Source: Klebsiella electrica (lineage in GTDB: Bacteria; Pseudomonadota; Gammaproteobacteria; Enterobacterales; Enterobacteriaceae). From it: a stretch of DNA of 64,000 bases. How positions within the stretch are numbered: position 1 is the stretch's first letter; each line of letters begins with the position of its first letter. The notes under the pieces are model-generated. The model did no database searches. It had not been told where the DNA came from and saw nothing but the letters and a program-made list of their open reading frames with translations. Of the stretch, positions 1 to 62,640 are shown in pieces. The position numbers and the translations under genes are program-made. The stretch spans positions 1,240,001 to 1,304,000 of the forward strand of contig NZ_CP041247.1 of NCBI RefSeq assembly GCF_006711645.1. Reading direction: 5' to 3'.

Positions 1-52
1 GAAGCAGGTTGAAGATTTTATCGCTCTGCGCCCATAGCCAATCGAATCTCAT
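1..52 (-). CDS. ABC transporter permease, betaine-type (5' end only)
   Basis: Only the first 17 codons are in the window (MRFDWLWAQSDKIFNLL). The ATG at 52-50 overlaps the TGA of the upstream ATPase gene as ATGA, the usual sign of translational coupling in an operon. An OpuC/OsmV-type ATPase gene is normally followed by its permease, so a membrane permease is inferred from position. Too little sequence is present to confirm it. Confidence 0.6.
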   Translation of the reverse strand, partial: MRFDWLWAQSDKIFNLL

Positions 53-1146
53 GCTCCCTCCTGACGCGTGGATTTACACATATCGAGTACCTGATCGAGG
101 TGGATAGTCCCCTGCGGGATTTGCCGTTCATCGACGATCACGGCCCGGTGGTTGGGAGAACTCAGCGCAGCGTCCAGCAAATGGCGCAACGGGCTTCCCT
201 GCTGGTGGAATGTCGCCCCCAGATTGATGTTGTCGAGCGTAATCGCCGTTGCCGGCTGATGGGTGTCGAACCAGCCAAACGCTTTGCCGTTTTGGGTAAC
301 CAACAGCCAGCGGTCGATGGCCATCTCTTTGGCCTGCTCGAAGGAACAGTCCAGCTCGGCATAGGGCTCGTTGCGTAACGCGGTTCCGGTGTTGGCGGAG
401 TGGAAACTCAGTTTGCGATAGCCTCTGTCTTTGCCGATAAAGTCCGCCACAAAGGCGTTTTGCGGCGTATTGAGCAGTTTGCCTGGGGAGGCCATCTGCG
501 CCAGTTTGCCGCCGGGTTTGAGTACCGCGACCAGATCGCCGAGCTTCATCGCCTCATCAATATCGTGAGTGACCATAATGATGGTTTTGCTCACCTCTTT
601 CTGAATACGCAAAAACTCTTCCTGCAGCTGTTCGCGAACCACCGGGTCGACCGCGCTGAACGGTTCGTCCATCAACATAAACTCCGGGTCGGCCGCCAGG
701 GCGCGGGCGACGCCCACGCGCTGCTGCTGGCCTCCGGAAAGCTGCCAGGGAAAGCGTTTGGCGATTTGCGGATCCAGACCGACGACTTCCAGCAATTCCC
801 CGGCTCTGGCTCTGGCTTTACTTTTGGCGGCGCCGTTGAGAATCGCGGTGGTGGCAATATTATCGATAATGTTTTTGTGGGGAAATAAACCAGCGTTTTG
901 AATGACATAGCCAATACGGCGGCGCAGTTGCACGATATCCATTTGCTCGGTGGCTTCGCCGTTAAGCAGGATTCGGCCCGATGACGGCTCCACTAAGCGG
1001 TTGATCATCCGCAATGAGGTGGTTTTTCCACAGCCCGAAGGGCCGACAAATACCGTAATTTTGCCTCCCGGCGCTACCAGGCTAAGGCCGTCTACTACGA
1101 CCGAACCGTTGCCGTAGTGCTTAGTCACATTCTGGAAGGTAATCAT
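49..1146 (-). CDS. OpuC/OsmV-type quaternary-amine ABC transporter ATPase
   Basis: Cytoplasmic ATPase of a binding-protein-dependent importer, 365 residues from the chosen start. Seen: Walker A GPSGCGKTT, signature LSGGQQQRVGVARAL, Walker B FMLMDEP and the H-loop VTHDIDEA, followed by a C-terminal extension of about 120 residues as in OpuCA/OsmV/ProV-like proteins. The family imports glycine betaine, choline, carnitine or related compounds. Relatives called HutV act in histidine uptake, and EgtV-type members import ergothioneine. The ATG at 1146 is preferred over an in-frame ATG at 1197 because a purine-rich GAGGCGTGAAG precedes it and it begins the conserved MITFQNVTKHYG. Its upstream region is shared with hutU and carries a sigma54-like promoter and a HutC-like palindrome, so it may serve histidine/urocanate-related uptake rather than osmoprotection. 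The substrate is unproven. Confidence 0.85.
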   Translation of the reverse strand: MITFQNVTKHYGNGSVVVDGLSLVAPGGKITVFVGPSGCGKTTSLRMINRLVEPSSGRILLNGEATEQMDIVQLRRRIGYVIQNAGLFPHKNIIDNIATTAILNGAAKSKARARAGELLEVVGLDPQIAKRFPWQLSGGQQQRVGVARALAADPEFMLMDEPFSAVDPVVREQLQEEFLRIQKEVSKTIIMVTHDIDEAMKLGDLVAVLKPGGKLAQMASPGKLLNTPQNAFVADFIGKDRGYRKLSFHSANTGTALRNEPYAELDCSFEQAKEMAIDRWLLVTQNGKAFGWFDTHQPATAITLDNINLGATFHQQGSPLRHLLDAALSSPNHRAVIVDERQIPQGTIHLDQVLDMCKSTRQEGA

Positions 1147-1222: not shown

Positions 1223-1234
1223 TTGTATGTACAA
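1223..1234. promoter_or_regulatory. HutC-like operator on the transporter side
   Basis: TTGTATGTACAA is a near-perfect palindrome of the TGTATATACA type bound by GntR-family HutC repressors. It covers the start point expected for the leftward sigma54-like promoter at 1237-1252. A second copy lies before hutU at 1573-1582. Binding is inferred. Confidence 0.55.
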
Positions 1235-1236
1235 CT

Positions 1237-1252
1237 AGCAAAACTTGTGCCA
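1237..1252 (-). promoter_or_regulatory. sigma54-type -24/-12 promoter for the ABC transporter operon
   Basis: Read leftward, the sequence is TGGCACAAGTTTTGCT, a full match to the RpoN consensus TGGCAC-N5-TTGCW with GG and GC ten bases apart. The predicted start near 1226 gives an untranslated leader of about 80 nt before the ATG at 1146. Confidence 0.65.
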
Positions 1253-1276
1253 TTACCAGGGGTTGCTGCAAACGAA

Positions 1277-1310
1277 TGACTATTTGGTCATTTAAAACAA
1301 CTATTTAGTT
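1277..1310. promoter_or_regulatory. two dyad elements upstream of the leftward promoter
   Basis: TGAC-N6-GTCA (1277-1290) and AACT-ATTT-AGTT (1299-1310) are short palindromes whose centres are 21 bp apart, about two helical turns. They sit about 58 and 79 bp upstream of the predicted leftward start. They look like a regulator pair, but no protein can be assigned. Confidence 0.3.
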
Positions 1311-1405
1311 ATTTATAGTGCTTTCTGGTCGCGCAATTTTTAGCGAGGTGAGAGGTCATGGCGGGGTCGAAAATGCATTGATGTTATCTTTTTGTGATGT
1401 TTTGT

Positions 1406-1422
1406 TGCACAAAAATAATGCG
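1406..1422. promoter_or_regulatory. NtrC-like enhancer site 1
   Basis: TGCACAAAAATAATGCG matches 13 of 17 positions of the NtrC consensus TGCACYAAAATGGTGCA. Its centre is about 164 bp upstream of the predicted hutU start. Confidence 0.45.
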
Positions 1423-1436
1423 TTGAGGCATGTTTT

Positions 1437-1453
1437 TGCACCATTATGGCTCA
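1437..1453. promoter_or_regulatory. NtrC-like enhancer site 2
   Basis: TGCACCATTATGGCTCA matches 13 of 17 positions of the NtrC consensus. It lies 31 bp from site 1, about three turns, like the paired NtrC sites at glnAp2. Its centre is about 133 bp upstream of the predicted hutU start. The pair lies between both divergent promoters and could serve both. Confidence 0.45.
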
Positions 1454-1508
1454 TCATCATGGTGTGATCCGCGAGGTCGTGCGCAGCATATTTTTATTTT
1501 TTTTATCT

Positions 1509-1521
1509 TAATTAATTGAAT
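1509..1521. promoter_or_regulatory. IHF-like site in an AT-rich tract
   Basis: TAATTAATTGAAT matches the IHF consensus, read on the opposite strand, with one mismatch. It lies in a very AT-rich stretch (1490-1550) between the NtrC-like sites and the hutU promoter, where a DNA bend is usual at sigma54 promoters. AT-rich DNA gives chance matches easily. Confidence 0.3.
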
Positions 1522-1551
1522 TTATTTAATTTTATAAATTAATTGCTAACC

Positions 1552-1568
1552 TGGCATCCAATATGCTT
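1552..1568 (+). promoter_or_regulatory. sigma54-type promoter for the hut operon
   Basis: TGGCATCCAATATGCTT has GG (1553-1554) and GC (1565-1566) separated by ten bases, as RpoN requires, and departs from TGGCAC-N5-TTGCW at two positions. The expected start is near 1578, inside the HutC-like palindrome. Confidence 0.5.
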
Positions 1569-1572
1569 ATCA

Positions 1573-1582
1573 TGTATATACA
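1573..1582. promoter_or_regulatory. HutC-like operator at the hutU promoter
   Basis: TGTATATACA is a perfect palindrome of HutC type at the predicted transcription start of hutU. HutC represses hut genes and is released by urocanate. No hutC gene lies in this window, so the repressor would act from elsewhere. Confidence 0.6.
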
Positions 1583-1652: not shown

Positions 1653-3329
1653 ATGAGTAAACAAGCAACCCGTTTTCGCGATGTTGAAATCAGAGCCCCG
1701 CGAGGCACTAAGCTGAACGCAAAAAGTTGGTTCACAGAGGCGCCGCTGCGCATGCTGATGAACAACCTGGATCCCGATGTCGCCGAAAATCCCAAAGAGC
1801 TGGTGGTGTACGGCGGTATTGGCCGGGCGGCGCGCAACTGGGAATGCTACGACAAGATCGTTGAGACCCTGAAGCAGCTCAATGATGATGAAACGCTGTT
1901 GATCCAGTCCGGTAAACCGGTGGGGGTTTTCAAAACCCACGACAACGCCCCACGGGTGCTGATCGCCAACTCGAACCTCGTGCCGCACTGGGCAAACTGG
2001 GAGCACTTCAACGAGCTTGATGCAAAAGGTCTGGCGATGTACGGGCAAATGACGGCCGGCTCATGGATCTACATCGGCAGTCAGGGCATTGTTCAGGGCA
2101 CTTACGAAACGTTTGTGGAAGCCGGGCGCCAGCACTATAACGGTAGCTTGCGCGGACGCTGGGTGCTGACCGCGGGTCTGGGGGGCATGGGCGGCGCTCA
2201 GCCGCTGGCCGCAACCCTGGCGGGAGCCTGTTCGCTGAATATTGAATGCCAGCAGTCGCGTATCGACTTCCGTCTGCGTACCCGCTATGTCGATGAGCAG
2301 GCCAGCGATCTGGATGACGCCCTGGCCCGCATCGCCCGCTATACCGCAAAAGGAGAAGCGGTATCCATCGCGCTGCATGGCAACGCGGCGGAAATTTTAC
2401 CGGAGCTGGTAAGACGCGGCGTGCGCCCGGACATGGTGACCGACCAGACCAGCGCACACGATCCCCTTAACGGCTATCTGCCGCTGGGCATGAGCTGGGA
2501 AGACTACCGCGCTCGCGCGCAGTCCCACCCGGTGGAGACGATCCACGCGGCGAAAGCCTCAATGGCTGAACACGTTAAAGCCATGCTCGCCTTCCAGCAG
2601 CAGGGCATTCCCACCTTCGATTACGGCAACAACATCCGCCAGATGGCGAAAGAGATGGGGGTGGAAAACGCGTTTGACTTCCCAGGCTTTGTTCCCGCCT
2701 ATATTCGTCCGCTGTTCTGCCGGGGGATTGGCCCGTTCCGCTGGGCGGCGCTTTCCGGCGATCCGGAGGATATCTACCGCACCGATGCGAAAGTCAAAGA
2801 GCTGATCCCCGACGACGAACACCTCCACCACTGGCTGGATATGGCCAGAGAGCGCATCAGCTTCCAGGGGCTGCCGGCCCGCATCTGCTGGGTCGGCCTG
2901 GGGCAGCGCGCCCGTCTGGGCCTGGCGTTTAACGAAATGGTCCGCAGCGGCGAGCTGTCGGCGCCGGTAGTGATCGGCCGCGATCATCTTGACTCCGGCT
3001 CCGTTGCCAGCCCTAACCGCGAAACCGAAGCGATGCAGGACGGCTCCGACGCGGTGTCCGACTGGCCGTTGCTGAACGCGCTGCTGAATACCGCCAGTGG
3101 CGCGACCTGGGTTTCTCTGCACCATGGCGGCGGCGTAGGGATGGGCTTCTCCCAGCACTCCGGCGTGGTCATTGTCTGCGACGGCAGCGATGCAGCGGCG
3201 GAACGCATCGCCCGGGTGCTGAGCAACGACCCGGCCACCGGCGTGATGCGCCATGCGGATGCGGGTTACGACATCGCGATTGAATGCGCCAGAGAGCAAG
3301 GACTCAACCTGCCAATGATTGCGGATTAA
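1653..3329 (+). CDS. hutU: Urocanate hydratase (urocanase)
   Basis: Converts urocanate to imidazolonepropionate, the second step of histidine breakdown, with tightly bound NAD+. The 558 residues match the family length. Seen: the conserved start EIRAPRGT, the NAD-binding stretch [19 protein letters not shown] near residue 175, and the active-site cysteine region [12 protein letters not shown] near 400. The ATG at 1653 is chosen because AAGGTGAA precedes it and the family's N terminus starts there; an in-frame ATG at 1620 has no good ribosome site and adds 11 poorly conserved residues. First gene of hutU-permease-hutI-hutG, behind the sigma54/HutC-like region. The partner hutH is absent from this block. 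Confidence 0.95.
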
Positions 3330-3382: not shown

Positions 3383-4774
3383 ATGAATAACAACACCACA
3401 TACATCGAAACACGCTCTATTGAGCCCATCCCTGACAGTGAACGCCACGGTAGCATTTTTAGCCAGTTCACCCTGTGGCTGGGGGCTAACCTGCAAATCA
3501 CCGCCATGGTCACCGGCGCCTTAACTATTGTATTCGGCGGGGATGTTTTCTGGTCGCTGGCCGGTCTGATGCTGGGACAGATTGCTGGCGGGATTGTGAT
3601 GGCATTGCACGCCGCGCAAGGGCCGCAGTTAGGGATACCGCAGATGATCAGCAGTAGGGTGCAGTTCGGCGTCTACGGCGCCTGCCTGCCGATTCTGCTG
3701 GTCTGCCTGATGTACCTTGGCTTTATCGCCACCGGGGCGGTGCTGTCCGGTCAGGCGATTTCGGCGGTTTTCCATACCACGGAAACCAGCGGCATTCTGC
3801 TTTTTGCTGCCGCCACGCTGGTTATCGCTTATGTCGGCTATCGCTTGATCCACCTGTTGGGTAAGCTGGCGAGCGTGGTGGGGATTATCGCGTTTCTCTA
3901 TCTGCTGTGGAAAATCAGCTCTTTTCCGGCTATTGGCGAGCTGCTGAGTGTCCGGCCCTTTAGCTGGAGCACGTTTTTAACCGCCACCGGCCTTGCGGCC
4001 TCCTGGCAGATCACCTTTGGCCCCTATGTTGCCGATTATTCCCGCTATCTGCCGCGCAGCACCTCTCCCGGGAAGGTCTTTTTCGCCGTCGGGAGCGGTT
4101 CGGTCATTGGCGCGCAAATCGCCATGACCGTCGGGGTGCTGGCTGCCGCGCTCTCTCAGGGAAAACTGGTCGGTCATGAGGTGGACTATATCGTCGGCCT
4201 CGGCGGCACCGGCGCAATAGCCACGCTGCTCTATCTGAGCATCGCGTTTGGTAAACTGACTATCAATACCCTGAATGCCTACGGTAGCCTGATGTGCCTG
4301 GCGACGGTATACAGTTGCGGGAAGCAGCGAGTGCGCGTGAGCCAGTCGGTGCGTCTGCTGGTGCTGGCGGTGATTATTACCCTGGCGACCGGTATCGCAA
4401 TTATTGGGCAGCACTCTTTCCTGTCGGCGTTTAAATCCTTCCTGCTATTCCTGTTGACTTTCTTTACACCGTGGAGCGCGATTAACCTGGTGGATTACTA
4501 TTTCTTTAATCACCAGGCGATAGACATGGAGGCGCTGAACGATCCGAACGGGAAATACCGGGCGTGGAACGTGACGGGGATCGGGGTTTATCTCGTCGGA
4601 GTGGCGGTACAGACGCCGTTTATTGATAGTGGATTCTATTCCGGCCCGTTCGTGAAGATGCTGGGCGGTATCGATATCTCCTGGCTCATCGGACTGGCGC
4701 TTCCGGCGGCGCTCTACTATGTCCTGCGCAAAGCGCAGTCCGCAGCGGCGGCCGGCGCCGCCATCAGTCGTTAA
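3383..4774 (+). CDS. NCS1-family permease, likely urocanate or histidine uptake
   Basis: A 463-residue inner-membrane protein with about 12 hydrophobic segments and the cytosine/purine permease (CodB-like) character: an acidic N terminus, then [16 protein letters not shown] and [15 protein letters not shown] in the first helices. GGAGT lies 7 bases before the ATG. It sits between hutU and hutI. Pseudomonas hut loci also contain an NCS1 permease used for urocanate. Position suggests urocanate, imidazolonepropionate or histidine as substrate; the sequence alone does not decide this. Confidence 0.8.
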
Positions 4775-4785
4775 AGGAGAACGCC

Positions 4786-5994
4786 ATGTATACCCTTTGG
4801 CACCACTGCCGGATTGCCACCATGGCCGCGGGTCATTATCAGTTGCTTGACGATGGCGCGATGCTGACCGACGGCGCAGCGCTGTTATGGGTCGGCAAGC
4901 GGGCGGAACTGCCGGACCTACCCGTCGCGCAGCGGGTGGATTTGCAGGGCCGGGTGGTCACGCCGGGGCTGGTGGATTGTCATAGCCACGCGGTGTTTGG
5001 CGGCGACCGGGCCCGGGAATTTGAAATGCGTCTTAACGGGGCGAGCTATGCGGAGATCGCGGCCGCCGGCGGCGGTATCGCCAGTACGGTCAACGCCACG
5101 CGACAGGCCAGCGAAAGCCAGTTACTGGAGAGCGCGAGGCAGCGTATCGGGGCGTTGTGCCGGGACGGCGTAACGGCGCTGGAAATTAAATCCGGCTACG
5201 GCCTGGATCTGGCTAACGAACGTAAAATGCTGCGGGTGATCCGCCGTTTAGGCGACATATTGCCGCTGACCGTGCGCAGTACCTGTCTGGCGGCCCATGC
5301 GGTGCCCGTCGAGTATCAGGATCGGGCAGATGCCTGGATTGACTCTATTTGCGAACAACTGCTGCCGGACCTGCATCAGGAAGGGTTGGTGGATGCGGTG
5401 GATGCGTTCTGCGAACACCTGGCGTTTTCGCCCTCGCAGGTGGAACGGGTCTTTCAGAAGGCCCGGGAGCTGGGGCTGCCAGTGAAGCTCCATGCCGAGC
5501 AGTTGACGCGACAGCATGGGGCGGCGTTGGCCGCTCGCTACCACGCGCTGTCGGCGGACCATCTGGAATATTTGTGCGAAGAAGATATCGCCGCGATGGC
5601 TCGCCATGGGACGGTGGCGGTACTGCTGCCGGGTGCCTATTACTTCCTGCGTGAGAAACAGCTACCGCCGCTGGATCTGCTGCGCCAGTACCGGGTGCCG
5701 ATTGCCCTCGCCAGCGATTTAAATCCCGGCACCTCGCCGGTATTGTCCCTGCGCCTGATGATGAATATGGCCTGTACGCTGTTTCGCATGACGCCGGAAG
5801 AGGCGTTGGCTGGGGTGACGCTTAACGGCGCGAAGGCGCTGGGGCTGGATGCGGTTTGCGGTTCTCTGGAAGCCGGAAAAGAGGCCAGCTTTGTGGCGTG
5901 GGATATTGCCCATCCGGCGGAGCTGAGCTACTGGCTGGGGGGCTCCCTTTCGAAACAGGTGATTTATCAAGGTAAGGAGGTTTATTGTGATTAA
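4786..5994 (+). CDS. hutI: Imidazolonepropionase
   Basis: Hydrolyses 4-imidazolone-5-propionate to N-formimino-L-glutamate, the third step of histidine breakdown, in the cytoplasm. The 402 residues fit the amidohydrolase family. Seen: metal ligands in [12 protein letters not shown] near residue 66, a later HAEQL histidine, SADHLEY, and the catalytic aspartate in ASDLNPG. A strong AAAGGAGAACGCC site precedes the ATG, 11 nt after the permease stop. The last 8 nt overlap the start of hutG, which implies coupled translation. Confidence 0.95.
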
Positions 5995-6790
5995 GGCGTT
6001 TGATTTGCGGCAGGGGAACCTGCCGCTGCTGGTCAGTATGCCCCATCCGGGAACGTTATTAACCCCCGAAGTCGCCCAGGGACTCACGCCGAGGGCGAAA
6101 CGTCTGGAAGATACCGACTGGCATATTCCTGTGCTCTATCAGACCATCGCCGACATGGGGGCCAGCACGCTATGCGCCTGTTATTCCCGCTATGTGGTGG
6201 ATATCAATCGCCCGGCCGATGATAAACCGCTTTATAGCACGGCGACGACCGGACTGTTTACCGATATCTTTTTTGACGGCGAAGCCCTGTTTGTGCCGGG
6301 CGGCGCGCCTGACGCGGCGGCGAGAGAGGTTATCTTAAAACACGTCTGGCAGCCTTATCACCAGGCGCTGGCCGCTGAACTGGCGCGCCTGCGTGAGAAA
6401 TTTGGCTATGCGCTGTTGTGGGATGCGCACTCGATTAAATCCGTGGTGCCGCGCTTGTTCGAAGGGCGCCTGCCGGATCTGAACTTCGGTACGGCGGACG
6501 GCGCCAGCTGTTCGACGCAGCTCAGTCAGGCGCTGCTGACAGGCTGCGAGGCGTTCCCGCAGTACAGCCGGATACTTAACGGCCGCTTTAAAGGCGGATA
6601 TATCACCCGCCACTACGGCGATCCCGCGAACCATATTCATGCGGTACAGCTGGAAATGGCTCAGTGCAGCTATATGGATGAAGAGAGCTTTGCCTATCTT
6701 CCGGAGAAAGCGCAGCAGGCGCAGCAGTTGCTGGAGCGGTTGATTAATACCGCGTTGCAGTGGGGACGAGAGCAGTATGGCGCTCCCTGA
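5987..6790 (+). CDS. hutG: N-formylglutamate deformylase
   Basis: A 267-residue protein of the N-formylglutamate amidohydrolase family ([50 protein letters not shown]). It releases formate and glutamate from N-formylglutamate, the last step of the five-step hut route. The start is GTG at 5987 with AAGGAGG six bases upstream, overlapping hutI by 8 nt. Enteric hut operons usually encode an arginase-like formimidoylglutamase under the name hutG, used in the four-step route. The deformylase type here needs a formiminoglutamate deiminase (hutF), which is not in the window. Confidence 0.9.
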
Positions 6791-32566: not shown

Positions 32567-32697
32567 AGGTCAGAGTAAAACGATAAAAAAGAGATTTCAG
32601 AATCAGGCCGGAATGTTGCGACATCCCGTGTCCCCGGTCGTACATCAAGCCGGTTGCCTGGTTCCTTGCATTGAGTGATGTACGGAGTTAAAGAGCA

Positions 32698-62051: not shown

Positions 62052-62640
62052 TTACCGGTGCACGGCGTAAAAGCCTCTCTCTGGCTGGCCTGATGTATGC
62101 AAAAGTTAACGCTCTGCAGGCGGTGCGCCACCGTGGGAACCTGTCAAAACCCGTCATTCTGTGGGCCACTGATAGTGGCTCTGTTGAAGTGTATTTCGAG
62201 ACAAGTAAGCGCGTGGGTAAACGTTCGGAAACTGACTATCTGGAAGATAGCGTGTCCGGCGCCGGCGGTGGATGTGGAGCCCATCACACCGCCAGCTATA
62301 AATTGCCGCACCGTGACAAAAAGGGCTTGCGGTCTGAAGGTATCCCGGTCTATGGTTATAGCGCACCAGCAAAATCTGGTGCCGGGATTGGCGTCCTGGT
62401 AAAGTTGTCGGCGACACATGACGCGCCAAGCGTCTTTTTTTGTGTCGTTAGCTCAGTACACCCTTTTTTCAGCGGTTCGGTTTCATACCGGACTTGCCTC
62501 AGAATTATGGTGGGCTGGGCGGGGGCTTCTTCGGAAGCGCCGGTTTCCGATAACGCCGGTTACGCCAACCCTGTCCAGTCCATCACCAGTGAAATTGGCG
62601 TTTCCGGTGATGGGTTTAATCCCCTGTTATCGGAGGCTGC
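62048..62640 (+). pseudogene. Ash/Icd-like upstream half, out of frame with its C-terminal half
   Basis: The frame opens at ATG 62048 (overlapping the DUF4222-like stop as ATGA) with MITGARRKSLSLAGLMYAK. Its later part (IMVGWAGASSEAPV near 62510, then SITSEIGVSGDGFNP) resembles the N-terminal part of Ash/Icd-like phage proteins. The expected C-terminal part (TPTQIPQFIWIIAAV) is in another frame from 62644. A one-base change at the CCCC run 62621-62624 would join them. The frame stays open to 63010 but that tail reads through other genes. It may be a disrupted gene, a recoded gene, or a leader region that is not translated as one protein. Confidence 0.5.

What the first reader, a model, noticed from the sequence alone, without database searches (positions are those of the whole stretch)
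1223..1582. Twin sigma54 promoters, each with a HutC-like palindrome at its start point, between an ABC transporter operon and hutU
Leftward, TGGCACAAGTTTTGCT (1237-1252) is a full RpoN consensus, and TTGTATGTACAA (1223-1234) covers the expected start. Rightward, TGGCATCCAATATGCTT (1552-1568) has the GG-N10-GC spacing, and TGTATATACA (1573-1582) covers the expected start. The palindrome centres are 10 and 12 bases beyond the GC of each promoter. The mirror layout is unlikely by chance and places an OpuC/OsmV-type transporter in the hut regulon. Known enteric hut operons rely on sigma70 with NAC/CRP, while sigma54 hut control is known in Pseudomonas.
Basis: partly seen in the sequence, partly recalled or inferred. 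Interest (0 to 1): 0.78.

Follow-up and report, generated by a model that had tools for sequence, protein, structure and literature searches.

The report
Mirror-image nitrogen-controlled histidine-pathway promoters in Klebsiella
Between two back-to-back gene groups for taking up and breaking down histidine-like compounds, a Klebsiella genome carries two mirror-image promoters that look switched on by nitrogen shortage and off by the histidine-pathway repressor, and relatives conserve that layout although the DNA around it has changed.

Summary
The 1147-1652 spacer carries two outward-facing sigma54 elements, each followed by a TGTA-N2-TACA HutC-type palindrome at the expected start point. The composite motif occurs twice in the 5.79-Mb genome, both here. 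In 15 aligned loci, not all independent, all four elements are present at nearly fixed spacing while the rest has diverged. My reading: one NtrC enhancer serving two HutC-repressed sigma54 promoters. No experiment was run.

The operons belong to a second, five-step, Pseudomonas-type hut module with its own hutC, also found on Klebsiella plasmids. The same genome's other hut cluster shows no good sigma54 element before hutU1. The promoter design itself is known from Pseudomonas: sigma54 plus HutC operator in 40 of 55 loci, always 7 nt apart. New here are the divergent twin layout, the host group and the transporter partner.

The leftward operon ends in a 'histidase' without the MIO triad, next to an OpuC-type transporter. 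My boldest reading is uptake and cleavage of a histidine betaine (hercynine) to urocanate; this is inference.

The parts
49..1146 (-). ATPase gene (called hutV here) of an OpuC/OsmV-type ABC transporter, first gene of the leftward operon (ATPase, permease, permease, binding protein, hutH2); many listed relatives are 365 aa, fitting a start at the ATG at 1146; the listed ORF runs to 1197
   Evidence: operon read in L100
1223..1234 (.). HutC-type palindrome TTGTATGTACAA over the expected leftward start point
   Evidence: exact TGTATGTACA in 15 of 15 spacers
1238..1252 (-). leftward sigma54 element TGGCACAAGTTTTGC
   Evidence: element present in 15 of 15 spacers
1407..1421 (.). NtrC-like site GCACAAAAATAATGC, 9 of 12 to GCACCA-N3-TGGTGC
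   Evidence: consensus from PMC12977541
1438..1452 (.). NtrC-like site GCACCATTATGGCTC, 10 of 12, 31 bp from the other site
   Evidence: 0.8% of 500 shuffles reach it
1552..1566 (+). rightward sigma54 element TGGCATCCAATATGC
   Evidence: element present in 15 of 15 spacers
1573..1582 (.). HutC-type palindrome TGTATATACA over the expected rightward start point
   Evidence: exact in 15 of 15 spacers
1653..3329 (+). hutU, urocanate hydratase; conserved start at 1653, listed ORF from 1620
   Evidence: (TIGR01228, 1020.6 bits, cut-off 375)
3383..4774 (+). NCS1-family permease; 58-65% identical to the one next to hutU in those Pseudomonas loci that have it (hutTu position, urocanate transporter)
4786..5994 (+). 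hutI, imidazolonepropionase
   Evidence: TIGR01224, 486.6 bits, cut-off 298
5987..6790 (+). hutG, N-formylglutamate deformylase (five-step pathway type)
   Evidence: TIGR02017, 335.4 bits, cut-off 278.75

Best explanation
The 1147-1652 spacer is a bidirectional control region for a self-contained second hut module. Shown by sequence and conservation: two outward-facing sigma54 elements, a HutC-type operator at each expected start point, and NtrC-like sites between them. Inferred: when nitrogen is short, phosphorylated NtrC bound at 1407-1452 loops to either promoter, about 130-165 bp upstream of the rightward start and 185-217 bp upstream of the leftward start, and activates RNA polymerase with sigma54. 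Without substrate, HutC bound over both start points blocks transcription; urocanate releases it. Uptake plus lyase (leftward) and urocanate breakdown (rightward) are thus induced together, only when nitrogen is needed and the pathway intermediate is present.
For: Position and spacing of all elements. Composite motif twice in the genome, both here; 47 sites in 392 family genomes against 6 reversed. Of the 30 loci returned by that scan (39 of the 47 sites), 23 have a gene of my hut reference set within 1.5 kb and 4 more a transporter binding-protein ORF, judged by eye. Conservation in ten chosen representatives: invariant columns 21 of 29 (left), 24 of 31 (right), 19 of 410 elsewhere. NtrC-like site scoring 9-11 of 12 in 15 of 15 spacers; at most 1.8% of shuffles reach the score in 13 of 15; position near-fixed. 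HutC equivalog beside the operon, NtrC equivalog, rpoN. In P. aeruginosa HutC protects 51 bp around TGTA-N2-TACA overlapping the sigma54 site, and NtrC activates hut in Pseudomonas (PMC12977541, passages; PMC8871633, passages).
Against: No transcript, start site or binding was measured. The rightward element departs from consensus at 2 of 10 positions. The NtrC-like sites are less conserved (6 of 30 columns invariant) and weak in two loci (L107, L108: 8.2% and 5.6% of shuffles reach the score). Three spacers (L111, L112, L114) hold one more weak sigma54-like word, 7 of 10, in the middle. NAC and CRP sites were not scanned for, so a second sigma70 promoter is not excluded. Among 23 fetched hutU loci outside Pseudomonas, Cedecea and Kosakonia, including 8 other enterics, none has the composite motif. 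The two HutC paralogues are 57% identical; which one binds is unknown.
Confidence: 0.85

Rival explanations
1. The promoters are sigma54-dependent but the activator is another enhancer-binding protein, such as the GlrR-like one encoded about 8 kb upstream, or an unidentified regulator; the central sites are incidental.
For: The NtrC model finds several other enhancer-binding proteins in this genome, one of them next to the module (the name GlrR is recalled). The central sites are less conserved than the promoters.
Against: Central sites match the NtrC consensus in every one of 15 spacers at a near-fixed position, with the second-best match 31-32 bp away in 10 of 15; the pathway yields ammonia; Pseudomonas hutU is NtrC-activated. 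The module also sits on plasmids, away from that gene in the two stretches read.
Confidence: 0.1
2. Transcription mainly comes from sigma70 promoters under NAC/CRP as described for K. aerogenes hut (recalled), and the sigma54 elements are minor or vestigial.
For: Four sigma70-like matches lie in 1140-1665. The other hut cluster of the genome has no good sigma54 element before hutU1.
Against: Four matches against 2.4 expected from shuffles (sd 1.3) is no clear excess. Conservation peaks at the sigma54 elements and operators.
Confidence: 0.06
3. The leftward operon simply imports histidine and hutH2 is a histidine ammonia-lyase, so the region is an ordinary duplicate hut locus.
For: Pfam and NCBIfam place HutH2 in the lyase family; sequence and fold comparisons rank histidine ammonia-lyases first. 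HutXWV of Pseudomonas takes part in histidine uptake (PMC8871633, passages).
Against: HutH2 lacks the Ala-Ser-Gly triad that forms the MIO group: GSVG-YLIATAH instead of GSVG-ASG-DLAPLAH, and 0 of 120 listed homologues have ASGDL. It scores 503 bits, below the hutH cut-off of 539. [quoted passage not shown]
Confidence: 0.3
4. The palindromes are chance or serve another GntR-type regulator.
For: TGTANNTACA occurs at 30 places in the genome; 5 of them lie at hut-type loci and the other 25 were not examined. In the window alone 5 of 100 shuffles reach two copies.
Against: Operator-at-start layout in 15 of 15 spacers and in 40 of 55 Pseudomonas hutU loci; the gene-blind scan lands on hut loci; further palindromes lie at hutF/hutC and before an MIO-free lyase operon.
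Confidence: 0.03

Closest known systems
sigma54/NtrC(CbrB)/HutC-controlled hutU promoter of Pseudomonas (P. fluorescens SBW25, P. aeruginosa PAO1)
   Same: sigma54 element followed by a TGTA-N2-TACA HutC operator at the start, with NtrC-type sites upstream; five-step pathway genes hutF, hutC, hutD, hutU, hutI, hutG
   Different: Pseudomonas: one promoter with a 7-nt gap in 40 of 40 matching loci. Here: two divergent promoters with gaps of 4 and 6 nt around shared central sites. HutU does not group with Pseudomonas HutU (weak support).
Four-step enteric hut cluster (K. aerogenes/Salmonella type; a cluster of this kind lies elsewhere in this genome, L101)
   Same: Shares hutC, hutU, hutH and hutI homologues; near-palindrome TGTATAGACA before hutU1
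   Different: No good sigma54 element there; MIO-type hutH; no hutG of the formimidoylglutamase family over the cut-off in this genome; described as sigma70 with NAC/CRP in K. aerogenes (recalled).
HutXWV transporter plus hutH1 of P. fluorescens SBW25
   Same: ABC transporter beside an MIO-free hutH homologue inside a HutC-controlled hut locus (that SBW25 hutH1 itself is MIO-free is inferred from gene order)
   Different: Permease and ATPase are only 28-30% and 42-45% identical in Pseudomonas loci of this arrangement, and the binding protein had no match at 1e-15; here two permeases and an OpuAC-type binding protein.
Ergothionase (Treponema denticola, PDB 6s7j)
   Different: Only 23-24% identical, and ranked below true histidine ammonia-lyases; the hutU here scores below the thiourocanate hydratase cut-off (695 against 930).

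Membership tests
Pseudomonas-type sigma54/HutC hut promoter | GG-N10-GC sigma54 element upstream of hutU | tested here: met
   1552-1566 and 1238-1252; 15 of 15 spacers
Pseudomonas-type sigma54/HutC hut promoter | TGTA-N2-TACA operator overlapping or next to the start | tested here: met
   1224-1233 and 1573-1582; gaps 4 and 6 nt against 7 in Pseudomonas
Pseudomonas-type sigma54/HutC hut promoter | two NtrC sites well upstream of the start | tested here: met
   9 and 10 of 12 matches, 31 bp apart; by sequence only
Pseudomonas-type sigma54/HutC hut promoter | CbrB activation | not tested
   no CbrB search was made; the abstract of PMC8871633 calls CbrAB unique to the Pseudomonas family (listing)
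Pseudomonas-type sigma54/HutC hut promoter | rpoN-dependent transcription and HutC binding relieved by urocanate | not testable with these tools
   needs wet work
HutC repressor | NCBIfam his_ut_repres equivalog over cut-off | tested here: met
   291.6 bits against 220; GntR and UTRA domains; below the stricter PRK14999 model (318 against 424)
Histidine ammonia-lyase (for HutH2) | Ala-Ser-Gly triad forming MIO | tested here: not met
   GSVGYLIATAH in place of GSVGASGDLAPLAH; 0 of 120 listed homologues have ASGDL
Histidine ammonia-lyase (for HutH2) | hutH equivalog score | tested here: not met
   503.4 bits against 539.15
Ergothionase-like trimethylamine lyase (for HutH2) | HAL fold without MIO | tested here: met
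   ergothionase lacks MIO
Ergothionase-like trimethylamine lyase (for HutH2) | catalytic residues of ergothionase | not tested
   no alignment to ergothionase was displayed by the tools; residues not recalled with certainty
Ergothionase-like trimethylamine lyase (for HutH2) | closest structural relative is ergothionase | tested here: inconclusive
OpuC/OsmV-type transporter | ProV-family ATPase, two permeases, OpuAC binding protein | tested here: met
   ATPase below the proV cut-off (281.9 against 326.6), binding protein far below the OsmF cut-off (91.7 against 400), so not OsmF itself

The most novel reading that the evidence does not exclude
The module is a catabolic route for histidine betaine (hercynine, perhaps related thio-compounds): the OpuC-type transporter imports the quaternary amine, the MIO-free HutH2 eliminates trimethylamine to give urocanate, and HutU, HutI, HutF and HutG finish the job, all under NtrC/sigma54 and HutC. 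The same logic would explain why hutH1 of Pseudomonas SBW25 is dispensable on histidine. For: none of 120 listed homologues has the MIO triad; the best solved match of the binding protein is the ergothioneine-binding EgtUC; transporter ATPase and lyase share 19 contig lengths of 5 kb or more among the 120 best hits of each, 93 and 94 distinct, so they often lie on one contig; HutU is an urocanate, not thiourocanate, hydratase. Against: the binding-protein match is weak (87 bits), and the DAYSTD stretch of EgtUC reads DLLSTS; histidine ammonia-lyases remain the nearest solved relatives of HutH2.
Probability: 0.4. Interest if true: 0.78.

Novelty: new variant of a known kind. Interest (0 to 1): 0.62.

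Why it matters
Klebsiella hut is a textbook case of nitrogen control through NAC and sigma70 (recalled). Here the same genome also carries a mobile hut module that appears wired straight to NtrC and sigma54, in a divergent layout whose motifs have outlasted the surrounding sequence. It gives a natural test of how one enhancer serves two opposed sigma54 promoters with repressors at both starts. The genome has no formimidoylglutamase over the family cut-off, so the module's hutF and hutG may be needed by both clusters; other hutF or deformylase genes were not searched for genome-wide. If the MIO-free lyase reading is right, it assigns a substrate class to a widespread, misnamed 'histidase' and its transporters.

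Tried and rejected
Chance origin of the motifs: rejected on conservation and the gene-blind scan. Recent transfer from Pseudomonas: the HutU tree puts the window with Cedecea and Kosakonia beside other Enterobacterales, not in Pseudomonas (support 84-86, quick method), so not supported. An RNA element in the spacer: none at Rfam gathering thresholds. Sigma70 promoters: no clear excess. Structure of HutH2: it gave the expected fold and did not single out ergothionase. Ergothionase residues: structure-library queries did not display that alignment (one search asked for none).

Literature on hercynine or ergothioneine breakdown feeding hut: searches returned 7, 0 and 3 papers; I read passages of one (PMC13405746). 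Its reference list names work I could not read: an ergothioneine sulfonate pathway (2022) and a gut bacterial ergothioneine pathway (2025), so the betaine idea may have precedents. Literature on sigma54/NtrC hut control in Enterobacteriaceae or on the plasmid hut module: searches showed none in their listings or in the passages read of PMC12977541, PMC8871633, PMC5343134, PMC12188710 and PMC9002059; the other listed papers were seen as listings only, and subscription journals are largely not held.

The order-wide ATPase search found it only in the own genome (1 of 394), although protein hits from Pantoea, Rahnella and Brenneria exist. The family and order searches scored at most four candidates a genome, so their absence counts are weak.

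Full report
What is in the sequence. The spacer between the divergent genes at 49-1146 (minus) and 1653-3329 (plus) contains a leftward sigma54 element (1252-1238), a rightward one (1552-1566) and a TGTA-N2-TACA palindrome beyond each (1223-1234, 1573-1582), as reported. The gene starts at 1146 and 1653 are the likely ones: many relatives of the ATPase are 365 aa, and the hutU start with its ribosome-binding site aligns in all 15 loci.

Where it lies. The window is C1:1240001-1304000 of a 5.79-Mb genome. The nearest named ATPase relative among 120 listed is from Klebsiella michiganensis (98%), so the host is a Klebsiella of that kind; the species was not determined further. The neighbouring stretch (L100) shows the rest of the module: hutF, then divergent hutC and hutD, then the leftward operon read towards them: ATPase, permease, permease, OpuAC-type binding protein, hutH2. 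Adjacent genes in that operon overlap or lie at most 31 bases apart. Rightward follow hutU, an NCS1 permease, hutI and the deformylase-type hutG. The module lies between a glrR-like gene (name recalled) and hmp-glyA.

Distribution. The ATPase is found at E up to 1e-150 in 10 of 392 genomes of the GTDB family, at 1e-130 in 3 of 20 of the genus and 1 of 394 of the order, which is the own genome; the family and order searches scored at most four candidates a genome. In plasmids, 275 records match the 6.7-kb stretch and 201 cover at least 80% of it; the 20 listed are 94.3% identical, and 199 of the 275 are Klebsiella. In E. coli 2 of 5426 genomes cover at least 80%, both on plasmids. The two plasmid copies read run from hutF to hutG (hutD annotated in one), with insertion sequences nearby.

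Conservation. Two fetched rows were left out: L106 (the window again) and L115 (G236, ATPase without adjacent hutU). Some rows are near duplicates. All 15 have TGTATGTACA on the left, TGTATATACA on the right and both sigma54 elements; the right gap is 6 nt in all, the left gap 4 nt in 14 and 3 nt in L107. In ten chosen representatives, invariant columns are 21 of 29 (left block), 24 of 31 (right block), 6 of 30 (NtrC-like sites) and 19 of 410 elsewhere; mean pairwise identity is 0.86, 0.91, 0.63 and 0.46.

A gene-blind test. The composite motif was searched in 392 family genomes: 47 sites in 31 genomes, against 6 for the reversed pattern. Ten genomes carry an opposed pair about 300 bases apart. 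Thirty loci were returned, holding 39 of the 47 sites; of the other eight, two are those of L113 and six were not examined. Of the 30 loci, 23 have one of my reference hut genes within 1.5 kb. In four others (L121, L123, L133, L145) the site precedes a transporter binding-protein ORF, judged by eye; those of L121 and L123 resemble the binding protein beside the MIO-free lyase of L150. L124, L134 and L140 show nothing relevant. Four loci (L120, L146, L147, L148) have the motif directly before a 61-63% identical ATPase without hutU within the locus, so the transporter's own membership in the regulon is wider than the twin layout.

The activator. Between the promoters every spacer has a site scoring 9-11 of 12 against GCACCA-N3-TGGTGC, the NtrC consensus quoted in PMC12977541. 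At most 1.8% of 500 dinucleotide shuffles reach the score in 13 of 15, and 8.2% and 5.6% in L107 and L108. The best site lies 125-128 bp before the right palindrome in 13 of 15 and 155-158 bp in the other two; the second-best match lies 31-32 bp away in 10 of 15. In the window they are 1407-1421 and 1438-1452. The genome has an NtrC equivalog (812.7 bits, cut-off 558.6) and rpoN.

Comparison with Pseudomonas and with the other hut cluster. The 80 hutU loci fetched are the best of at least 596. Of them 40 of 55 Pseudomonas loci have TGG-N10-GC followed exactly 7 nt later by the palindrome within 600 bases of hutU; a few loci are cut short by the contig end. None of 23 loci from genera other than Pseudomonas, Cedecea and Kosakonia does, among them 4 Serratia, Yersinia, Photorhabdus, Providencia and an enteric metagenome bin. 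Eight of eight Acinetobacter loci have the palindrome alone. In P. aeruginosa HutC protects 51 bp around this site, overlapping the sigma54 site (PMC12977541, passages); in Pseudomonas NtrC, CbrB and HutC all act there (PMC8871633, passages). Leyn et al. 2016 (PMC5343134, section 12 read) reconstructed HutC regulons including a COG1457 permease in Klebsiella, so part of this regulon was predicted before; that section mentions neither sigma54 nor this ABC transporter. The other hut cluster of the genome (L101) has a near-palindrome TGTATAGACA before hutU1; within 400 bases upstream its only GG-N10-GC word scores 6 of 10 and lies in hutC1. The genome has no formimidoylglutamase over the cut-off (three sub-cut-off relatives at 108-117 bits).

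The lyase. HutH2 lacks the MIO triad. Among ORFs over 400 aa of the 80 loci, 69 of 69 that match the classic hutH best carry ASGDL and 45 of 45 that match HutH2 best do not. None of 120 listed homologues has ASGDL; in 117 the motif reads GSVGYL..., and 3 did not match the search expression. [quoted passage not shown] its position matches the MIO-free type in these loci. Ergothionase, which releases trimethylamine from ergothioneine, is a known MIO-free member (PMC13405746, passages). The binding protein's best solved match is EgtUC. HutH2 keeps the equivalents of HAL Tyr53, His83, Arg283 and Glu414, which are invariant in 28 aligned homologues (Y58, H88, R283, E416), but not Asn195, Tyr280 or Phe329 (read from the 1b8f alignment; HAL numbering and roles are recalled). 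From this I infer a betaine-type substrate giving urocanate; fold comparison did not favour ergothionase over ordinary histidine ammonia-lyases.

Verdict. Observation confirmed; interpretation supported by comparative sequence evidence and extended by an NtrC enhancer and module context. It is a new variant of a known promoter kind.

Noticed in passing
L150:8981-13606 (C1:3010000-3028000): A third hutH homologue, also MIO-free (120 of 120 listed homologues lack ASGDL), ends an operon with an amino-acid-type ABC transporter; TGTATATACA lies about 75 bp upstream of the binding-protein gene, with only weak GG-N10-GC words (5 and 6 of 10) nearby.
   Followed up: partly
L101:7376-9495: The other hut cluster runs hutI, hutC, hutU, hutH with no hutG, and no formimidoylglutamase over the family cut-off exists in the genome, so the window module's hutF and hutG may serve both clusters.
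   Followed up: partly
L100:4780-4960: The hutF/hutC spacer carries TGTATATACA and a further TATATATACA repeat, also seen in Kosakonia L010, suggesting HutC autoregulation.
   Followed up: partly
L118, L119 and records: The hut module is carried on many Klebsiella plasmids and two E. coli plasmids; the two copies read lie near insertion sequences and include their own hutC.
   Followed up: partly
L133, L145: The sigma54 plus palindrome motif precedes a different binding-protein ORF containing EPWLGYGQWH, a possible further transporter of the hut regulon in other genera.
   Followed up: no
L136: Twin promoters are kept although only about 90 codons of the ATPase gene match within the locus, with hutC nearby: perhaps a degraded copy of the leftward operon.
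   Followed up: no
L101:3176-3931: The permease ORF after hutH1 is only 251 aa, and a TGTATATACA palindrome (L101:3921-3930) overlaps its start; possibly a truncated hutT.
   Followed up: no
window 32587-32696; 62363-62590: Rfam matches: iscRS stability element, and isrK plus C4 antisense RNA, the latter two typical of a prophage (typical setting recalled).
   Followed up: no
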